Shown: positions 1 to 5,131 of the stretch, piece by piece
Layout of the letters: every line of letters starts with the position of its first letter
How positions within the stretch are numbered: position 1 is the first letter of the stretch
Assembly (NCBI RefSeq): GCF_024159085.1
Contig: NZ_JAMZDE010000008.1
Coordinates: 62,001-126,000 of the forward strand
Direction of reading: 5' to 3'
Origin: Idiomarina rhizosphaerae
GTDB lineage: Bacteria; Pseudomonadota; Gammaproteobacteria; Enterobacterales; Alteromonadaceae
Length of the DNA stretch: 64,000 nt
The notes under the pieces: model-generated
The model's database searches: none
Seen by the model: only the letters and a program-made list of their open reading frames with translations
Told to the model about the DNA's origin: nothing
Position numbers and translations under genes: made by a program

Positions 1-1580
1 TTCCAATGCGGGACAAAACCTTTCAGTAAACCGAATGCGATCACAGTCTTATATTCTTCCCCCTTTACCCCATGACAAGAGTTTATAACTATTCCAGTAG
101 ACCTCTTAAAAAAACTCTTAAGAGCTACTACCGTATCCTCATATTGACCGTCGTTGTTTTCTATATTTGAAGTGGCTTTCTCAAAGAACAGATCAAGTTG
201 TTCCTTTAGCAACAAATCATAAGCTAAATCTATGTCTAATTCGGACAGTATAAACTCAAAGCACTCTTTAAGGTATTTAGTGCCTACACCAGTATCACTG
301 TGAAAAGAGTTAATTACTTTAAGCAGTTTTTTAGCAGTTAAATCACGAGTGTGATGATGTTTCTCTACGAGATTATTTAACAACTCATTTGCCCATCTAA
401 CACGAGAGCTGAACAACTTTTCTGATGGTTCAGTCAATACCAACTTGGAAACTATCAACCAAAAATTGTCTTGTTGACCATGAAACGGCGACAAAGCTGG
501 GGCATCAAACTTCACATTCGGTAATAAAGTTATGAGCTTCTTTGTCATTGACCTTATTGGTGCCCATTGAGGAGCGATAACACATATATCATTTTCACTT
601 GTACCGCTATTGAGCTCTGTTTGAATTAACTCTGATATGGCTTCAGCAAGATGCTCTTTGTCAACTGATTGATTGAAAAAGCTTATGATCCCTTGCTCAT
701 TTCTATGCGCCGCTTTTGATACTCCTCCTTGAACGCCTCTAAAAGCCGAGAAATAGTCAACCAGTCTTTGCGTAGAGCGGTAATTGTCGCTAAACGTAAA
801 TTGGTTGATATTGCTACCCACAAATTCAGCGTTCAACTCTGCTAAGGTAAGAGATTTACCTCCAATGCCTCCATAAATTGCTTGATTTTCGTCGCCTACG
901 ATAAACAAGGAAGGTTTTATATGTGACTCGTTAAATATTTTGGCTAAAATTGCATACTGTAAATCTTGAGTATCTTGCACTTCATCAACACAAATATGAG
1001 TGAATATATTGCTTAAATTCTGGGCGATTTCTGGCCGCGTTTCCATTAACTGAAATGCAAAATAGAGTGACTGGTCAAAATCAATTTTCTTTCTTGAAGA
1101 TAGTATCTGACGGTATTCTTGCTCCACTGCTTCTGCTCGAGCATTTTGGTTTTCAACCACACCCTGCCTATTAAAGGTTGTATTTACGTCATCGAAAAAA
1201 CCTAAACCTTTATCAGATTTTAATTTGCTAAGTATTTTTCTTGTCTCAAACTCATCCGCAACGGAGTATCCCGAGTTAAGTGTTGCAGAGTATGAGGCAT
1301 AAGGCTTTATTAACCACTCAAGGGCAAAGGAGTGAATCGTCCCAGCCCAAACGCGACCATTTTCTATGGTGAAACTTTCAGCTAATCTAGCCTTTATTTC
1401 ATCAGCAGCTCGGTTTGTGAAGGTTACAGCGAGCACTTTGTTGTTTTTATGCTTTAACTCCTCAACAGCTTTCGCTATCCAGGCCGTAAGTGCTCTAGTT
1501 TTTCCGCTCCCGGGACAAGCCGCAACGTATGCATTACCATTGTAGTTTACAGCTGCATGCTGTTCATTGCTTAACTTCAT
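1..1580 (-). CDS. gajB: UvrD/Rep-type superfamily 1 helicase, GajB-like, 3' end outside the window
   Basis: About 526 residues are visible from the ATG at 1580 to the window edge with no stop, so the gene is truncated by the window only. Helicase motifs are clear: Walker A APGSGKT-like CPGSGKT near residues 22-28, Walker B VDEVQD near 199, GDENQAIYG near 226, NYRST near 264, and a motif V-like HGVKGEEY near 503. It follows the OLD-family nuclease gene with a gap of only 2 bases, so the two are almost surely co-transcribed and translated together. An OLD ATPase/TOPRIM nuclease plus a UvrD-like helicase is the Gabija defence architecture, in which GajB senses or processes DNA ends and stimulates GajA. 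The assignment rests on motifs and neighbour; a stand-alone repair helicase is the alternative. Confidence 0.85.
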   Translation of the reverse strand, partial: MKLSNEQHAAVNYNGNAYVAACPGSGKTRALTAWIAKAVEELKHKNNKVLAVTFTNRAADEIKARLAESFTIENGRVWAGTIHSFALEWLIKPYASYSATLNSGYSVADEFETRKILSKLKSDKGLGFFDDVNTTFNRQGVVENQNARAEAVEQEYRQILSSRKKIDFDQSLYFAFQLMETRPEIAQNLSNIFTHICVDEVQDTQDLQYAILAKIFNESHIKPSLFIVGDENQAIYGGIGGKSLTLAELNAEFVGSNINQFTFSDNYRSTQRLVDYFSAFRGVQGGVSKAAHRNEQGIISFFNQSVDKEHLAEAISELIQTELNSGTSENDICVIAPQWAPIRSMTKKLITLLPNVKFDAPALSPFHGQQDNFWLIVSKLVLTEPSEKLFSSRVRWANELLNNLVEKHHHTRDLTAKKLLKVINSFHSDTGVGTKYLKECFEFILSELDIDLAYDLLLKEQLDLFFEKATSNIENNDGQYEDTVVALKSFFKRSTGIVINSCHGVKGEEYKTVIAFGLLKGFVPHW

Positions 1581-1582
1581 AC

Positions 1583-3682
1583 CTACCTGTCCAGCAGCTC
1601 AATCAGGTAAGACAAATCGTCATCAGCACATCTTTCTTTAAACTCGTCAATGCACGCATTCATATCTGTTTGATTATTGCTAAAGAATTGTAGTGGCTTT
1701 TCATCATCTTCTAATGCTGGCATGGGCTTAGAAAGCCTGTGCCAGCACATCTTATAAAGAATTTTAGGTGCAAGTTTGTAGCCACATGAAAATGCAATTG
1801 CATCTAATATGTAACTTGGGATGTAAGTTTGAGAGGTCACTTTTTCCGACAACAAAAGAGCTAGCCATCCTTTGCCAACCTTCTCCGCAAGACGAAGTAT
1901 TTCTTTTCCAAATACTTCTACAGCATGATTTTCAAGCAAATTTGATGATTTAGTTATGTTGGCTTGCTGTTGATAAATAGAGGAAAGCACTTCTTTTGCT
2001 TCAATTGAATTATCAGCGCCTATAAAGTCGACTTCAAAAGTATGGTTGGCGTAAAAAGCGCTAATAAAGTCATTATCCTTAGTATGTTCGTCTAACTTTC
2101 CCTTTCTAATTAACCCTGACTTTTGAGAGTTTCGACATGACCTTTGATACTTGCTGTCATTGACCTCATCATCTGGTAAGGGAACGATGGATGTATCTAA
2201 GTCAGTAATAATCGCACAGTGTTTTCGTATTCTTTCGGGGTGAAATAAGTTTGAAATATGTTCAAAAAAAGCGCTATCCATACTTATTAGACTTATCCCA
2301 AGCTCGTCCAATGAAACACCGAGAACATTTCTAACTAAAGCCGGGATCAATATAAGCTCTGCTTCTCCCTCAACTAAAATTACTCCTTTGGCAAACAGGA
2401 GAGTTGAGCGTGTGGCGTTCAGGTACCTTTCTATACGATCACAATCCGTGGGAGTAAGTTGATTTGAGGGTTGAAAAACATCAACGTGATTTTCATTCAA
2501 CCCAAGTATATTAATATCGGCAATCTTTGCTACGGATGAAATGTGAGTTGAGTGTGTTGAGAGAAAGACTTGGGTTTTGTCAATTGAGTGACTTTCAAAC
2601 AGTGTTTTCTGAATGTGAGTATGAATGTGAGCTTCTGGCTCTTCTATGACTAAAAATTGTGCTGCCTTATCAGCTTCTTGCTTCCGTTCATATTCTAGCA
2701 GTTTCAGTGCGACATATATTAGGTTAGCACCGCCGAGACTAAGCTCATTAAGGTCGCCACTATAGCCATCAACATAGTTGTCACCAACAGTTAACGAAAG
2801 CTTTTGTAAAAGTTTGTCCAACTCACTTGGTAGAGACGACTCAATATCAATGACTGGCGAAAACGTATAGCCAACCGTTTTGTGCAGCGTATCTTGAATT
2901 CCACTGGAAACTTTTTTAATTTCATCTAATTCCGAAATTGAGTCGTTGACTTCAGAAATGAGAGTCGTAATGTTTTCGGCGTCTTGCTCGGATATTTCTG
3001 ACTCCAGGCCTTTTAATAAAGCTATTAATGGACTGTTTCTGTAATTTTTTAAATCGGAAACTACATCTCTAAGTGCTTTGACAAATGTAAAGGATACTTC
3101 TTCGTGTAATGGTGAGAGTTTTACTCCGTAAGCCATAAAATTCCTGTCGTCAGGGTCTGGGAATACGAAGTTGTGAAAGTCTCCTACCAGGTTTCGGTAT
3201 GTACCTTCGCATAGAAAATTGGCGTTAGCTCTGCCTGAAAATACTGGCTCGTAATCCTCTATGGTAATTTCATCAATGATTTGCTGAGCTAAAACTTGGT
3301 TGCCGCTGGCTTCAAACAGTGCTTTCCTTATTTTCAGGCAAGGTCGGAAATAATAAGTTAGAGTACCTTTTTCACTGCCGTCCACATGCCCAGCATCATG
3401 TTTTAGCATCTGGCAACCTTCATGAGATGACAGTTCATCAAAATCTACCGAAATGACAATCCAGTGACCTCTCCAGTCTCCAAGGTTACGGCAGAAGTCA
3501 CTATCCCGTAACTTTGTAATGTTTCTGGGGAGAGACTCGTCAAGAAGAAGACGTAGAGCGAAAAGAGCATTAGTCTTACCTGAACCATTTTCGCCAAGAA
3601 TGGTATTGACACCTTTCTTAAAGGAGAACTTTGCGGTTGAGAAATTCCTAAAATTGCGTATCCGTAATGAGCTTATGTACAT
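1583..3682 (-). CDS. gajA: OLD-family ATPase/TOPRIM endonuclease, GajA-like (Gabija)
   Basis: 699 residues. The N-terminal half is an SMC/ABC-like ATPase: Walker A GENGSGKT at residues 30-37, a signature-like LSLGG near 312-316, Walker B VIEEPEAH near 343-350 and a STHS switch near 373. The C-terminal half is a TOPRIM domain with the acidic residue of LVEGEAE near 437 and the DLD pair near 494-496. This is the class 2 OLD nuclease plan, which is paired with a UvrD helicase, as here. It is longer than the roughly 580-residue characterised GajA. The start is supported by a purine-rich AGGTGAAGGG run just upstream. Predicted to nick or cut invading DNA when nucleotide pools fall during phage replication; that role is taken from the family, not from this sequence. 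Confidence 0.85.
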   Translation of the reverse strand: MYISSLRIRNFRNFSTAKFSFKKGVNTILGENGSGKTNALFALRLLLDESLPRNITKLRDSDFCRNLGDWRGHWIVISVDFDELSSHEGCQMLKHDAGHVDGSEKGTLTYYFRPCLKIRKALFEASGNQVLAQQIIDEITIEDYEPVFSGRANANFLCEGTYRNLVGDFHNFVFPDPDDRNFMAYGVKLSPLHEEVSFTFVKALRDVVSDLKNYRNSPLIALLKGLESEISEQDAENITTLISEVNDSISELDEIKKVSSGIQDTLHKTVGYTFSPVIDIESSLPSELDKLLQKLSLTVGDNYVDGYSGDLNELSLGGANLIYVALKLLEYERKQEADKAAQFLVIEEPEAHIHTHIQKTLFESHSIDKTQVFLSTHSTHISSVAKIADINILGLNENHVDVFQPSNQLTPTDCDRIERYLNATRSTLLFAKGVILVEGEAELILIPALVRNVLGVSLDELGISLISMDSAFFEHISNLFHPERIRKHCAIITDLDTSIVPLPDDEVNDSKYQRSCRNSQKSGLIRKGKLDEHTKDNDFISAFYANHTFEVDFIGADNSIEAKEVLSSIYQQQANITKSSNLLENHAVEVFGKEILRLAEKVGKGWLALLLSEKVTSQTYIPSYILDAIAFSCGYKLAPKILYKMCWHRLSKPMPALEDDEKPLQFFSNNQTDMNACIDEFKERCADDDLSYLIELLDR

Positions 3683-4219
3683 CCCTTCACCTATTGACTT
3701 TTAACCCCCCTAATACTAAAAGAGTATCTTTCGAGCACTCCATAAGGCTCTTAATACAGTGCATGAGGGTTTATGAACCAGTCAAAATATACTCCCACCG
3801 TAAAACTCTCGGATAAGCCAATGCAGTCTAGGTATGCGCAGTTACCCTAAAATGGCGGTAATATACTGAACTTTAAGTTTTAGTTATGTTGTTGACACTA
3901 AACGACTTAAGTTAACAATACAATGTAATATAGATGATATTTTAGAGATAGGTTTACCTTGCACAGCTTGTGCCATAGGGGCTCTACCCAGATTTTGTGA
4001 AAGGAGCCTATTTATTGTTTATGTATTTTAGGCGAAAACTTAGGATACTCAGGGGTACGCCAGTTACCGCGCTTTAGTTTCGGTGCGGGAGATAAGTTAA
4101 TAGTTTTAACGTGATGACATTTTATCGTGTCGCTTTAAAAAAAGTAACGTGTGAAACCGGCCTTTGTGACCTATGGCGCGGGCTTTTTTAATGACAATGA
4201 CACGTGTGACCTACACTTT
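3683..4219. other. 537-base stretch without a gene between the defence pair and the LysR gene
   Basis: No convincing coding region is seen in any frame. It should hold the gajA promoter (reading left); near its start lies a small inverted repeat ATACT-AAAAG-AGTAT at 3713-3727. A second short inverted repeat, GCACA-GCT-TGTGC, sits at 3961-3973, and the 9-mer TGTGACCTA occurs twice near the right end (around 4165 and 4205). No tRNA or integrase gene is present, so no attachment site can be named. It may mark the edge of an acquired defence segment. Confidence 0.4.
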
Positions 4220-5131
4220 TTAAAACTGCTGCTGTGCAAGATGAGGAAGCTTTTCAGCGAGGAAATCGATGAGAACACGCACTGCCGGCAATATTCCCCG
4301 TCGGTGCGAGTACGTCATATGCATGATCCCGATGGGTAGATGCCAGTCGGTTAAAACGGGGACAAGTTCCCCACTATTCACTGCATCGTTACAGAGGTAA
4401 TTTGGTAAAGCGACAATGCCAAGTTTTTTTATTGCAGCTTCTCGTAAGACAATCATATCGTCGGTGATAAGCCGGGGTTTTATTCTGATATTTTTTTGCT
4501 GGCCTGAACTGTGGATCAATTCATAACCATATCGTCCGTTGGTGTAATGCATACTCAAATGCTCGAACGTTAATAAGTCCTCAGGCTCAGTTATCGAGTT
4601 ATGATTTATTAAGTCGGGAGCGATATAAAGGGTTTGAGGTGCCTGGCTTATGGGTCTGGCTATTAAACTTGAGTCTTCTATATTCTTTCGTACGCGCAGA
4701 GCTATGTCGATGCCCTCTTCTATTAAATTAACTGGTCGGTTTGTCACTACAAGCTGAATTTCAACTTCCGGATACAAACTCATAAATTCAGGTAACACCT
4801 GGACTAACAAGCTTTGGCTTAAAGCATAGGGCGCGCTAATTTCGACTTTACCCCGGGGTTTATCCAGTAAACGCTGTGTGACTTGTTGAGCCGATTCAGC
4901 TGCGCTGACAAGACGTTCGCAGTGCACCAAGAATTCACGTCCAACGTCAGTTAATTTGAGGCCTGACCGGCTTCTGTGAAACAGCCGGGTACCCTGCTCT
5001 TGCTCGAGTATAGCCATTTTTCGGCTTATGGTGGATTTGGGCAGCCCGAGCTCCCGTGAGGCTGCGCTGATACTGCCGCAGGCCATAACCTGAGCGAACA
5101 GGTAGTAGTTTGTGACGTCAGGAAATGACAT
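4220..5131 (-). CDS. LysR-family transcriptional regulator
   Basis: 303 residues, the normal length of the family. The N-terminal winged helix-turn-helix (about residues 5-62) carries the typical GSISAASRELGLPKSTISRK stretch followed by LEQEQGTRLFHRS; the rest is a periplasmic-binding-protein-like effector domain. It belongs to the large subgroup whose effector domain starts with a PRGKVEISAPYALSQ-type strand. It is divergent from the azoreductase gene 117 bases away, and the shared region has a palindrome and a spaced direct repeat, so it most likely controls that gene and itself. The effector is unknown; by analogy it may be a quinone or electrophile. Confidence 0.9.
   Translation of the reverse strand: MSFPDVTNYYLFAQVMACGSISAASRELGLPKSTISRKMAILEQEQGTRLFHRSRSGLKLTDVGREFLVHCERLVSAAESAQQVTQRLLDKPRGKVEISAPYALSQSLLVQVLPEFMSLYPEVEIQLVVTNRPVNLIEEGIDIALRVRKNIEDSSLIARPISQAPQTLYIAPDLINHNSITEPEDLLTFEHLSMHYTNGRYGYELIHSSGQQKNIRIKPRLITDDMIVLREAAIKKLGIVALPNYLCNDAVNSGELVPVLTDWHLPIGIMHMTYSHRRGILPAVRVLIDFLAEKLPHLAQQQF

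What the first reader, a model, noticed from the sequence alone, without database searches (positions are those of the whole stretch)
1..3682. Gabija-type defence pair at the window edge
An OLD ATPase/TOPRIM nuclease gene is followed after 2 bases by a UvrD-like helicase gene, both with intact motifs. GajA is about 120 residues longer than the studied enzyme, so it may be a distinct variant. More defence genes could lie to the left of the window.
Basis: partly seen in the sequence, partly recalled or inferred. Interest (0 to 1): 0.6.

Follow-up and report, generated by a model that had tools for sequence, protein, structure and literature searches.

The report
Gabija defence on dif-targeting transposon
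The two genes are an ordinary, intact Gabija anti-phage defence system, but they ride on a Tn7-like transposon that has landed at a fixed spot beside dif, the site where bacteria separate joined chromosomes, in several related species.

Summary
The Gabija pair is real. GajA (window 1583-3682, minus strand, 699 aa) and GajB (586 aa, 526 inside the window) match PADLOC GajA and GajB models end to end (896 and 666 bits), with catalytic residues conserved. The long GajA is a described branch (best model 709 positions), found at 80-87% in Leucothrix, Marinomonas and Pseudoalteromonas. It is neither a new variant nor housekeeping: 0 of 18 held congeners have a full-length copy.

The new part is the carrier: a 6,822-bp transposase-less transposon (window -2606 to 4215) with inverted ends and a 4-5 bp target duplication, 38 bp from dif. 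Two congeners have elements with the same ends at the same base and orientation; one carries tnsA-tnsB-tnsC-tniQ-type genes with Thoeris and type I restriction. Each duplication copies that host's own empty site, so the insertions are independent. A fourth copy, in another genus, lies 39 bp from a dif-like site, with an unrelated spacer. All four copies of this end found in 395 family genomes are dif-adjacent. I infer a Tn7-like family that homes to dif; eight library searches found none described. Recognition of dif itself is not shown experimentally.

The parts
1583..3682 (-). gajA: OLD-family ABC ATPase/TOPRIM nuclease, 699 aa. Walker A GENGSGKT (30-37); TOPRIM residues E438, E442, D494, D496, T548, E550, K604
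   Evidence: PADLOC PDLC00072 896 bits over 1-696; Pfam AAA_15 and OLD-like_TOPRIM; residues mapped through PDB GajA/OLD alignments and invariant in 5 homologues
1..1580 (-). gajB: UvrD-like SF1 helicase, 586 aa in full (continues left of the window to -179); 526 aa lie in the window
   Evidence: PADLOC PDLC00127 666 bits over 2-586; Pfam UvrD-helicase and UvrD_C; full gene read from the contig
1..4215 (.). right-hand part of the Gabija-carrying transposon (whole element: window -2606 to 4215, contig C8:59394-66215, 6,822 bp, 41.3% GC against 45.7-45.9% in the flanks)
   Evidence: ends, length and GC; absent from the matching place in close relatives G016 and G005
4188..4215 (.). right terminal inverted repeat TTAATGACAATGACACGTGTGACCTACA; its partner starts at window -2606 (TGTAGTTCGCACATGTCATTGTCATTTT...)
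   Evidence: 23 of 28 positions match the reverse complement of the left end; 28/28 and 27/28 identical to the right ends in G017 and G014
4216..4219 (.). target-site duplication CTTT (5 bp ACTTT if the terminal A is counted with the duplication); the other copy precedes the left end
   Evidence: single copy at the same place in G016 and G005
4220..5131 (-). host gene beside the insertion: LysR-type regulator (named by eye); its stop codon is 4 bp from the transposon end
   Evidence: 17 of 19 held genomes of the genus, own included, have it at E 1e-80; distance

Best explanation
An intact Gabija anti-phage system, carried as cargo by a transposase-less member of a Tn7-like transposon family that homes to the chromosome-dimer-resolution site dif. 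Steps shown by sequence: intact gajA and gajB with catalytic residues; element ends as inverted repeats; short target duplication; insertion 38 bp beyond the XerD arm of the only dif site found in this genome; the same ends at the same base and orientation in two congeners, one with tnsA-, tnsB-, tnsC- and tniQ-type genes; the same left end near a dif-like site in another genus. Steps inferred: that TniQ (543 aa) or TnsC recognises dif, or XerCD on dif, and directs TnsAB to insert about 40 bp away; that this copy was mobilised in trans or lost its tns genes; that GajA and GajB form the known 4:4 complex and cut or block linear phage DNA when activated.
For: Gabija: full-length PADLOC hits; BcGajA E379 and E383 align to E438 and E442, and the OLD TOPRIM chains put the DxD, T/E and K positions on D494, D496, T548, E550, K604, all invariant in 5 homologues (residue roles from PMC10781630 and PMC10822852, passages). 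Same 699/586-aa, 2-bp layout in Leucothrix and Marinomonas with no shared neighbours. Transposon: inverted ends, duplication and empty sites. dif: one copy in the genome at up to 3 mismatches, exact in 14 and one mismatch in 2 of 16 hotspot loci, at 0.488-0.510 of the circle from a recF-like gene in the 4 single-contig congeners. Fixed place: 38 bp to the duplication and 42 bp to the transposon end in G000, G017 and G014; 39 bp to the end in G968. Distance to the LysR stop is not fixed: 4, 2 and 34 bp. Independence: each spacer is closest to that of relatives empty at this place (G000-G005 37/38, G017-G002 34/38, G014-G018 35/38) and the duplication follows it, CTTT/CTTT/CATT. The G968 spacer has 8-16 of 38 matches to the others, so between dif and the transposon end no DNA is seen shared. 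Specificity: the left end, at up to 3 mismatches, occurs in 4 of 395 family genomes, once each, all beside dif; reversed-pattern control 0 in the rows. tnsA, tnsC and tniQ by Pfam above cut-off; tnsB by a weak rve hit and position.
Against: The element here has no transposase, and no relative of the G017 TniQ (E 1e-10) or TnsB (E 1e-3) was found in this genome, so its mobility is inferred. Only one autonomous copy is known. Its TnsB has no match at E 1e-60 in 369 class genomes and one 29% relative in 394 order genomes; neither the stretch around that relative nor that around a 26% TniQ relative (G028) holds a dif-like site at 19 of 28 or better. The cases are four, three in one genus where the spacer is homologous. 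The G968 site differs from dif in the XerC arm; its place in the chromosome and uniqueness were not tested, and the far side of that element is off the contig, so a LysR gene there is not excluded. The duplication reads as 4 or 5 bp; Tn7 makes 5 (recalled). G000 and G017 share two cargo genes. No experiment shows defence or homing; the AlphaFold model of GajA was unusable (pLDDT 30.5).
Confidence: 0.78

Rival explanations
1. The transposon recognises the 3' end of the LysR gene next to dif, as Tn7 recognises glmS, and dif is a bystander.
For: In three genomes the element lies just beyond the LysR stop codon, the classical Tn7 arrangement. In G968 the side where such a gene would lie is off the contig, so it cannot be excluded there.
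Against: The distance to the LysR stop varies (4, 2 and 34 bp) while the distance to dif is the same to the base. In G968 the genes on the readable side differ (no Lon-like gene seen; pyrF-like and transporter-like by eye), yet the dif-like site is 39 bp away.
Confidence: 0.13
2. One ancestral insertion near dif, kept or lost in different lineages, or moved between species by homologous recombination across the dif region.
For: G000 and G017 share the 273/190-aa cargo genes at 90% DNA identity.
Against: Relatives of each have empty sites with one copy of the target sequence; spacer and duplication match each host's own group (CTTT or CATT), so recombination junctions would have to fall at the transposon ends on both sides. 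No tree was built.
Confidence: 0.1
3. Gabija only, in a random genomic island; the dif neighbourhood is merely a neutral landing zone near the terminus.
For: The other side of dif also collects elements: 5 of 16 loci have half-dif junctions with filamentous-phage-like or Xer-type elements.
Against: Those junctions lie in dif itself; this family sits at one base with one orientation and shared ends.
Confidence: 0.03
4. An OLD nuclease-helicase pair that is a different defence or repair system, not Gabija.
For: Only weak sequence similarity to BcGajA as a whole (57 bits by profile).
Against: Both genes hit GajA and GajB models first and end to end; AriA and Old models score far lower (109 and 99 against 896 bits).
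Confidence: 0.03

Closest known systems
Gabija system (GajA-GajB), e.g. Bacillus cereus VD045
   Same: OLD ABC ATPase-TOPRIM nuclease next to a UvrD-like helicase; same catalytic residues
   Different: GajA 121 residues longer, in the ATPase domain and at the C terminus; a branch already modelled by PADLOC (PDLC00072)
Tn7-like transposons with defence cargo (Benler et al. 2021, PMC8649781, passages read: 6,549 transposons; its table gives 338 for Gabija OLD nuclease and 61 for Thoeris ThsB, unit of count not seen)
   Same: tnsA-tnsB-tnsC-tniQ-type core in the G017 copy; Gabija, Thoeris and restriction systems as cargo; inverted ends
   Different: attachment site is dif; the copy in this genome has no tns genes
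IS1202-family insertion sequences such as ISAjo2 (PMC10132070, start of abstract and passages)
   Same: insert at a fixed distance and orientation beside dif or pdif; transposase sharing motifs with TnsB; TGT...ACA ends
   Different: 1.5 kb, one transposase, no other Tn7 proteins, 5 bp from the XerC site; here 38 bp from the XerD arm
Tn5053-family res-site hunters (PMC11406308, passages)
   Same: TniQ-dependent targeting of a site-specific recombination site
   Different: target is the resolution site of Tn1721 and related Tn3-family transposons, not chromosomal dif

Membership tests
Gabija (GajA) | ABC ATPase plus TOPRIM domains of the OLD family | tested here: met
   Pfam AAA_15 112 bits and OLD-like_TOPRIM 59 bits, both above cut-off
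Gabija (GajA) | TOPRIM active-site residues (BcGajA E379, E383, D432, D434; OLD_Bp T506, E508, K562) | tested here: met
   E438, E442 by direct alignment to GajA chains; D494, D496, T548, E550, K604 by the class 2 OLD TOPRIM chains; invariant in 5 of 5 aligned
Gabija (GajB) | Adjacent UvrD-like helicase with Walker A and DExQD motifs | tested here: met
   UvrD-helicase 156 bits; CPGSGKT and DEVQDTQD in the translation
Gabija | Both genes closest to GajA and GajB models | tested here: met
   first hits PDLC00072 and PDLC00127, full length
Gabija | 4:4 complex and anti-phage activity | not testable with these tools
   needs expression, structure and plaque assays; the structure model failed
Tn7-like transposon (copy in this genome) | Encodes TnsA, TnsB, TnsC and TniQ | tested here: not met
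   the element's ORFs of 90 aa or more are gajA, gajB and the 273-, 190- and 178-aa genes; no TniQ or TnsB match in the genome. It is a transposase-less element with ends shared by one that has them
Tn7-like transposon (G017 copy with the same ends) | Encodes TnsA, TnsB, TnsC and TniQ | tested here: met
   Tn7_TnsA-like_N, TniB and TniQ above Pfam cut-off; TnsB rests on a sub-cut-off rve hit (22.5 bits, E 1.4e-4), its size and place, and 22-26% plasmid relatives mostly annotated as Mu transposase C-terminal
Tn7-like transposon | TGT...ACA ends and 5-bp target duplication | tested here: inconclusive
   ends TGTAG...CTACA in G000 and G017, TGCAG...CTACA in G014; duplication 4 or 5 bp depending on one base
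dif-homing element | Fixed distance and orientation to dif in independent insertions | tested here: met
   42, 42, 42 and 39 bp in the 4 copies found; the fourth at a dif-like site whose status as chromosomal dif is untested
dif-homing element | dif or XerCD is required for targeting | not testable with these tools
   needs transposition assays
IS1202 family | single transposase, insertion 5 bp from the XerC site | tested here: not met
   38 bp from the XerD arm; G017 copy has four tns-type genes

The most novel reading that the evidence does not exclude
A family of Tn7-like transposons whose target selector reads dif, perhaps XerCD bound to it, and uses the chromosome terminus as a standing landing site for exchangeable defence cargo. 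Because dif is found in many bacterial chromosomes, this attachment site would not depend on any neighbouring gene, and copies without transposase could be moved in trans.
Probability: 0.6. Interest if true: 0.68.

Novelty: new variant of a known kind. Interest (0 to 1): 0.52.

Why it matters
Tn7-like elements are the source of CRISPR-guided transposases, and how their TniQ/TnsD proteins choose sites is an active question. A member that homes to dif would link transposition to chromosome dimer resolution, could be tested directly, and would explain how Gabija and Thoeris come and go at one locus. The Gabija pair by itself adds one more member to a common system.

Tried and rejected
GajA as a new variant: rejected, since a PADLOC model of 709 positions already covers the branch and 205 plasmid records hold relatives at E 1e-20, 165 of them over 80% of the query. 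A larger conserved Gabija operon with the left-hand genes: rejected; Leucothrix and Marinomonas copies share no neighbours, and the 273/190-aa pair occurs in the G017 element, where I saw no Gabija. Phage-borne origin: 10 phage records matched, none over 80% of the query; viral contigs gave no confirmed relative. Plasmid copies of the transposon ends: none by blastn. dif near the Leucothrix, Marinomonas and Pseudoalteromonas copies: no site at 19 of 28 or better in the stretches held. Structure prediction of GajA from three sequences gave pLDDT 30.5 and was not used. In one search the tally '36 of 60 with a match' was not used for presence or absence: apart from the own genome and G057 (46% over 1-633), these are short or weak matches, many at the ATPase N terminus. 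G014 has a weak TnsB relative elsewhere (24%, E 5.5e-7), which I did not follow. In the hotspot count 4 of 19 genomes of the genus (G009, G011, G013, G015) were left out because the two flanking genes were not both found on one contig; G011 was still fetched.

Literature, library searches only, most with capped lists: Tn7-like + 'dif site' + TniQ, 0 papers; Tn7-like + XerC + TnsD, 2 by listing, neither on dif targeting by title; three of transposon/dif site/Tn5053/XerCD, 34 papers, 15 listed; three of Tn7-like/dif/terminus/TnsD, 18, 15 listed; Tn7-like attachment sites, 33, 15 listed; two of Tn7-like/dif/chromosome dimer resolution, 112, 12 listed, two followed up by passages; TnsABC + dif site, 1 paper on genetic tools, listing only; one search returned only the IS1202 paper. 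Most subscription papers are not in this library.

Full report
What was claimed and what is there. Both are there on the minus strand: GajA at window 1583-3682 (699 aa) and GajB from 1580 leftwards, cut by the window edge at 526 aa. The window is contig C8:62001-126000 of a 2.87-Mb genome; on the contig GajB is a complete 586-aa gene.

Is it Gabija? PADLOC gives GajA PDLC00072 at 896 bits over residues 1-696 and GajB PDLC00127 at 666 bits over 2-586; AriA (109 bits) and Old (99 bits) are far behind for GajA. Pfam finds AAA_15, OLD-like_TOPRIM and UvrD-helicase above their cut-offs. Solved GajA and OLD chains align: B. cereus E379 and E383 fall on E438 and E442, and the class 2 OLD TOPRIM chains put the DxD, T/E and K positions on D494, D496, T548, E550 and K604; all are invariant in five homologues (the query and four at 43-87% identity). 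The roles of these residues come from PMC10781630 and PMC10822852 (passages). The 121 extra residues are about 55 between the Walker A and Walker B regions and about 58 after the TOPRIM lysine (my arithmetic). This length is normal for the branch: the PADLOC model has 709 positions.

Distribution. Of 60 genomes of relatives (own included), the strong matches were the own gene and one at 46% over residues 1-633 in another family (G057); none of 18 congeners has a full-length copy, the best being a 29% partial match. In a class sample, 2 of 369 at E 1e-100, own included. Leucothrix pacifica (87%) and Marinomonas colpomeniae (80%) carry the same 699/586-aa pair with the same 2-bp gap and no shared neighbours. 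Plasmids hold relatives in 205 records, one at 86% in a Pseudoalteromonas megaplasmid, where TnsA- and TniB-annotated genes lie 5-9 kb away and the helicase is annotated as a gene of only about 300 aa. So the pair itself travels widely.

The carrier. A Lon-like gene and a LysR gene (both named by eye) flank the region. Of 19 genomes of the genus, own included, 15 have both genes at one place: in 8 the gap is about 150-540 bp, in 7 it is 1.4-18.5 kb with different contents. I fetched 16 regions, these 15 and G011. A 28-bp sequence, ATTGCGTATAATGTATATTATGTTAAAT, is exact in 14 and one mismatch away in 2 of 16. It matches the gammaproteobacterial dif consensus (recalled), occurs once in this genome at up to three mismatches, and lies at 0.488, 0.502, 0.503 and 0.510 of the circle from a recF-like gene (354-aa frame; name by me) in the four single-contig congeners. 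I take it as the chromosome dimer resolution site.

In this genome DNA from window -2606 to 4215 is absent from the matching place in G016 and G005, the closest relatives (Lon-like protein 97-98%, LysR 99%). Its ends are inverted repeats (23 of 28) with a duplicated CTTT, or ACTTT if the last A is counted with it. Inside are gajA, gajB and genes of 273, 190 and 178 aa without family matches above cut-off. No transposase gene was seen among the ORFs of 90 aa or more.

The same ends in other species. G017 has an 18,303-bp element between the same ends at the same base: tnsA-, tnsC- and tniQ-type genes by Pfam, a tnsB-type gene by a weak integrase-core hit, Thoeris ThsA and ThsB, a TIR-TM gene and type I restriction genes, and the same 273/190-aa genes at 90% DNA identity. 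G014 has a 2,407-bp element with two ORFs of 331 and 285 aa (a membrane protein and a LysR-type regulator by eye). In all three, 38 bp separate dif from the duplication, in one orientation. The duplications are CTTT, CTTT and CATT, each as at the same place in that lineage's relatives, and each spacer is closest to relatives empty there: G005 37/38, G002 34/38, G018 35/38. I read these as independent insertions; no tree was built.

Is dif the target? Distance to the LysR stop is 4, 2 and 34 bp, so LysR is a poor ruler. A search for the left end with up to three mismatches found 4 of 395 family genomes: these three, once each, and G968 from another genus; the reversed-pattern control gave none. 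In G968 a dif-like site (24 of 28, differing in the XerC arm) lies 39 bp from the transposon end in the same orientation. Its spacer matches the others at only 8-16 of 38 positions, and the genes on the readable side are unrelated by eye. The G968 contig ends before a right end is found, so the far side, where LysR would lie, cannot be read, and I could not check whether that genome has another dif. A sample of 295 order genomes found only the own copy. Distant relatives of the G017 TnsB (29%, G534) and TniQ (26%, G028) are not beside a dif-like site in the stretches fetched, so the habit, if real, may belong to this close family only.

Mechanism. Most likely TniQ, which at 543 aa is in the size range of TnsD-type selectors (recalled), or TnsC binds near dif, or senses XerCD there, and TnsAB inserts about 40 bp from the XerD side. 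The Gabija copy, lacking tns genes, would have moved in trans or lost them. For Gabija, published work gives an octamer of four GajA and four GajB (PMC10822852, start of abstract and passages), a nucleotide-sensing nicking endonuclease (PMC8136825, title and start of abstract) and, in P. aeruginosa, a block on circularisation of linear phage DNA devoid of RecBCD (PMC12407980, abstract and Discussion read; it argues against the earlier nucleotide-depletion model). That this pair does either is inference.

What is known. Gabija and Thoeris as Tn7-like cargo are known (PMC8649781, passages). Fixed insertion beside dif is known for the single-transposase IS1202 family, 5 bp from the XerC site (PMC10132070, passages). 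Tn5053 uses TniQ to find res sites (PMC11406308, passages). In the Tn7 target-selector survey PMC10293859 I saw 12 of 18 passages; there Xer appears as a structural relative of TnsF, and no passage shown speaks of dif as a target. I found no paper on a tnsABC-tniQ element at chromosomal dif in eight library searches, several with capped lists; the library lacks most subscription papers.

Verdict. The finding is a true Gabija system of ordinary kind. Its carrier, a transposase-less member of a Tn7-like family that repeatedly lands at a fixed base beside dif, is a new variant of a known kind, well supported as an anatomical pattern in three congeners plus one partial copy in another genus, and untested as a mechanism.

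Noticed in passing
L002:14855-15676 (window -1146 to -325), and L031:3027-3848: A 273-aa gene without a Pfam, NCBIfam, PADLOC or PHROGs match above noise, shared with the G017 transposon together with a 190-aa partner. Five plasmid records hold 28-31% relatives; four of these (two Cupriavidus, one Pseudomonas, one uncultured) aligned with the two chromosomal copies keep R226 and DVHG, an R-x6-H pattern like HEPN RNases (motif recalled); two lie beside trb genes. Possible defence or plasmid-competition gene.
   Followed up: partly
L002:12831-13229 and L026, L021, L024, L030, L032: On the XerC side of dif, 5 of 16 loci have a half-dif junction. Elements there include a filamentous-phage-like insert with II/X replication protein and Zot-family gene (G006) and a small element with a rolling-circle replication-like gene (G003); 132-137-aa genes weakly match the VC1465 family of Xer activation factors, below cut-off.
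   Followed up: partly
L019:529-1082: G005 carries a small gene pair between the Lon-like gene and dif that looks like a RelE/ParE-type toxin with antitoxin (by eye, no family search).
   Followed up: no
L049 (CP076682.1:172000-216000): The closest plasmid GajA (86%) lies 5-9 kb from TnsA- and TniB-annotated genes of a different, distant Tn7-like element (TnsB-like 23% to G017) without a dif-like site in the 44 kb held; its helicase is annotated as a gene of about 300 aa, perhaps split.
   Followed up: partly
L046:6923-7798 and L047:1486-2895: Gabija relatives on Priestia and Citrobacter plasmids sit directly beside Shedu-annotated genes.
   Followed up: no
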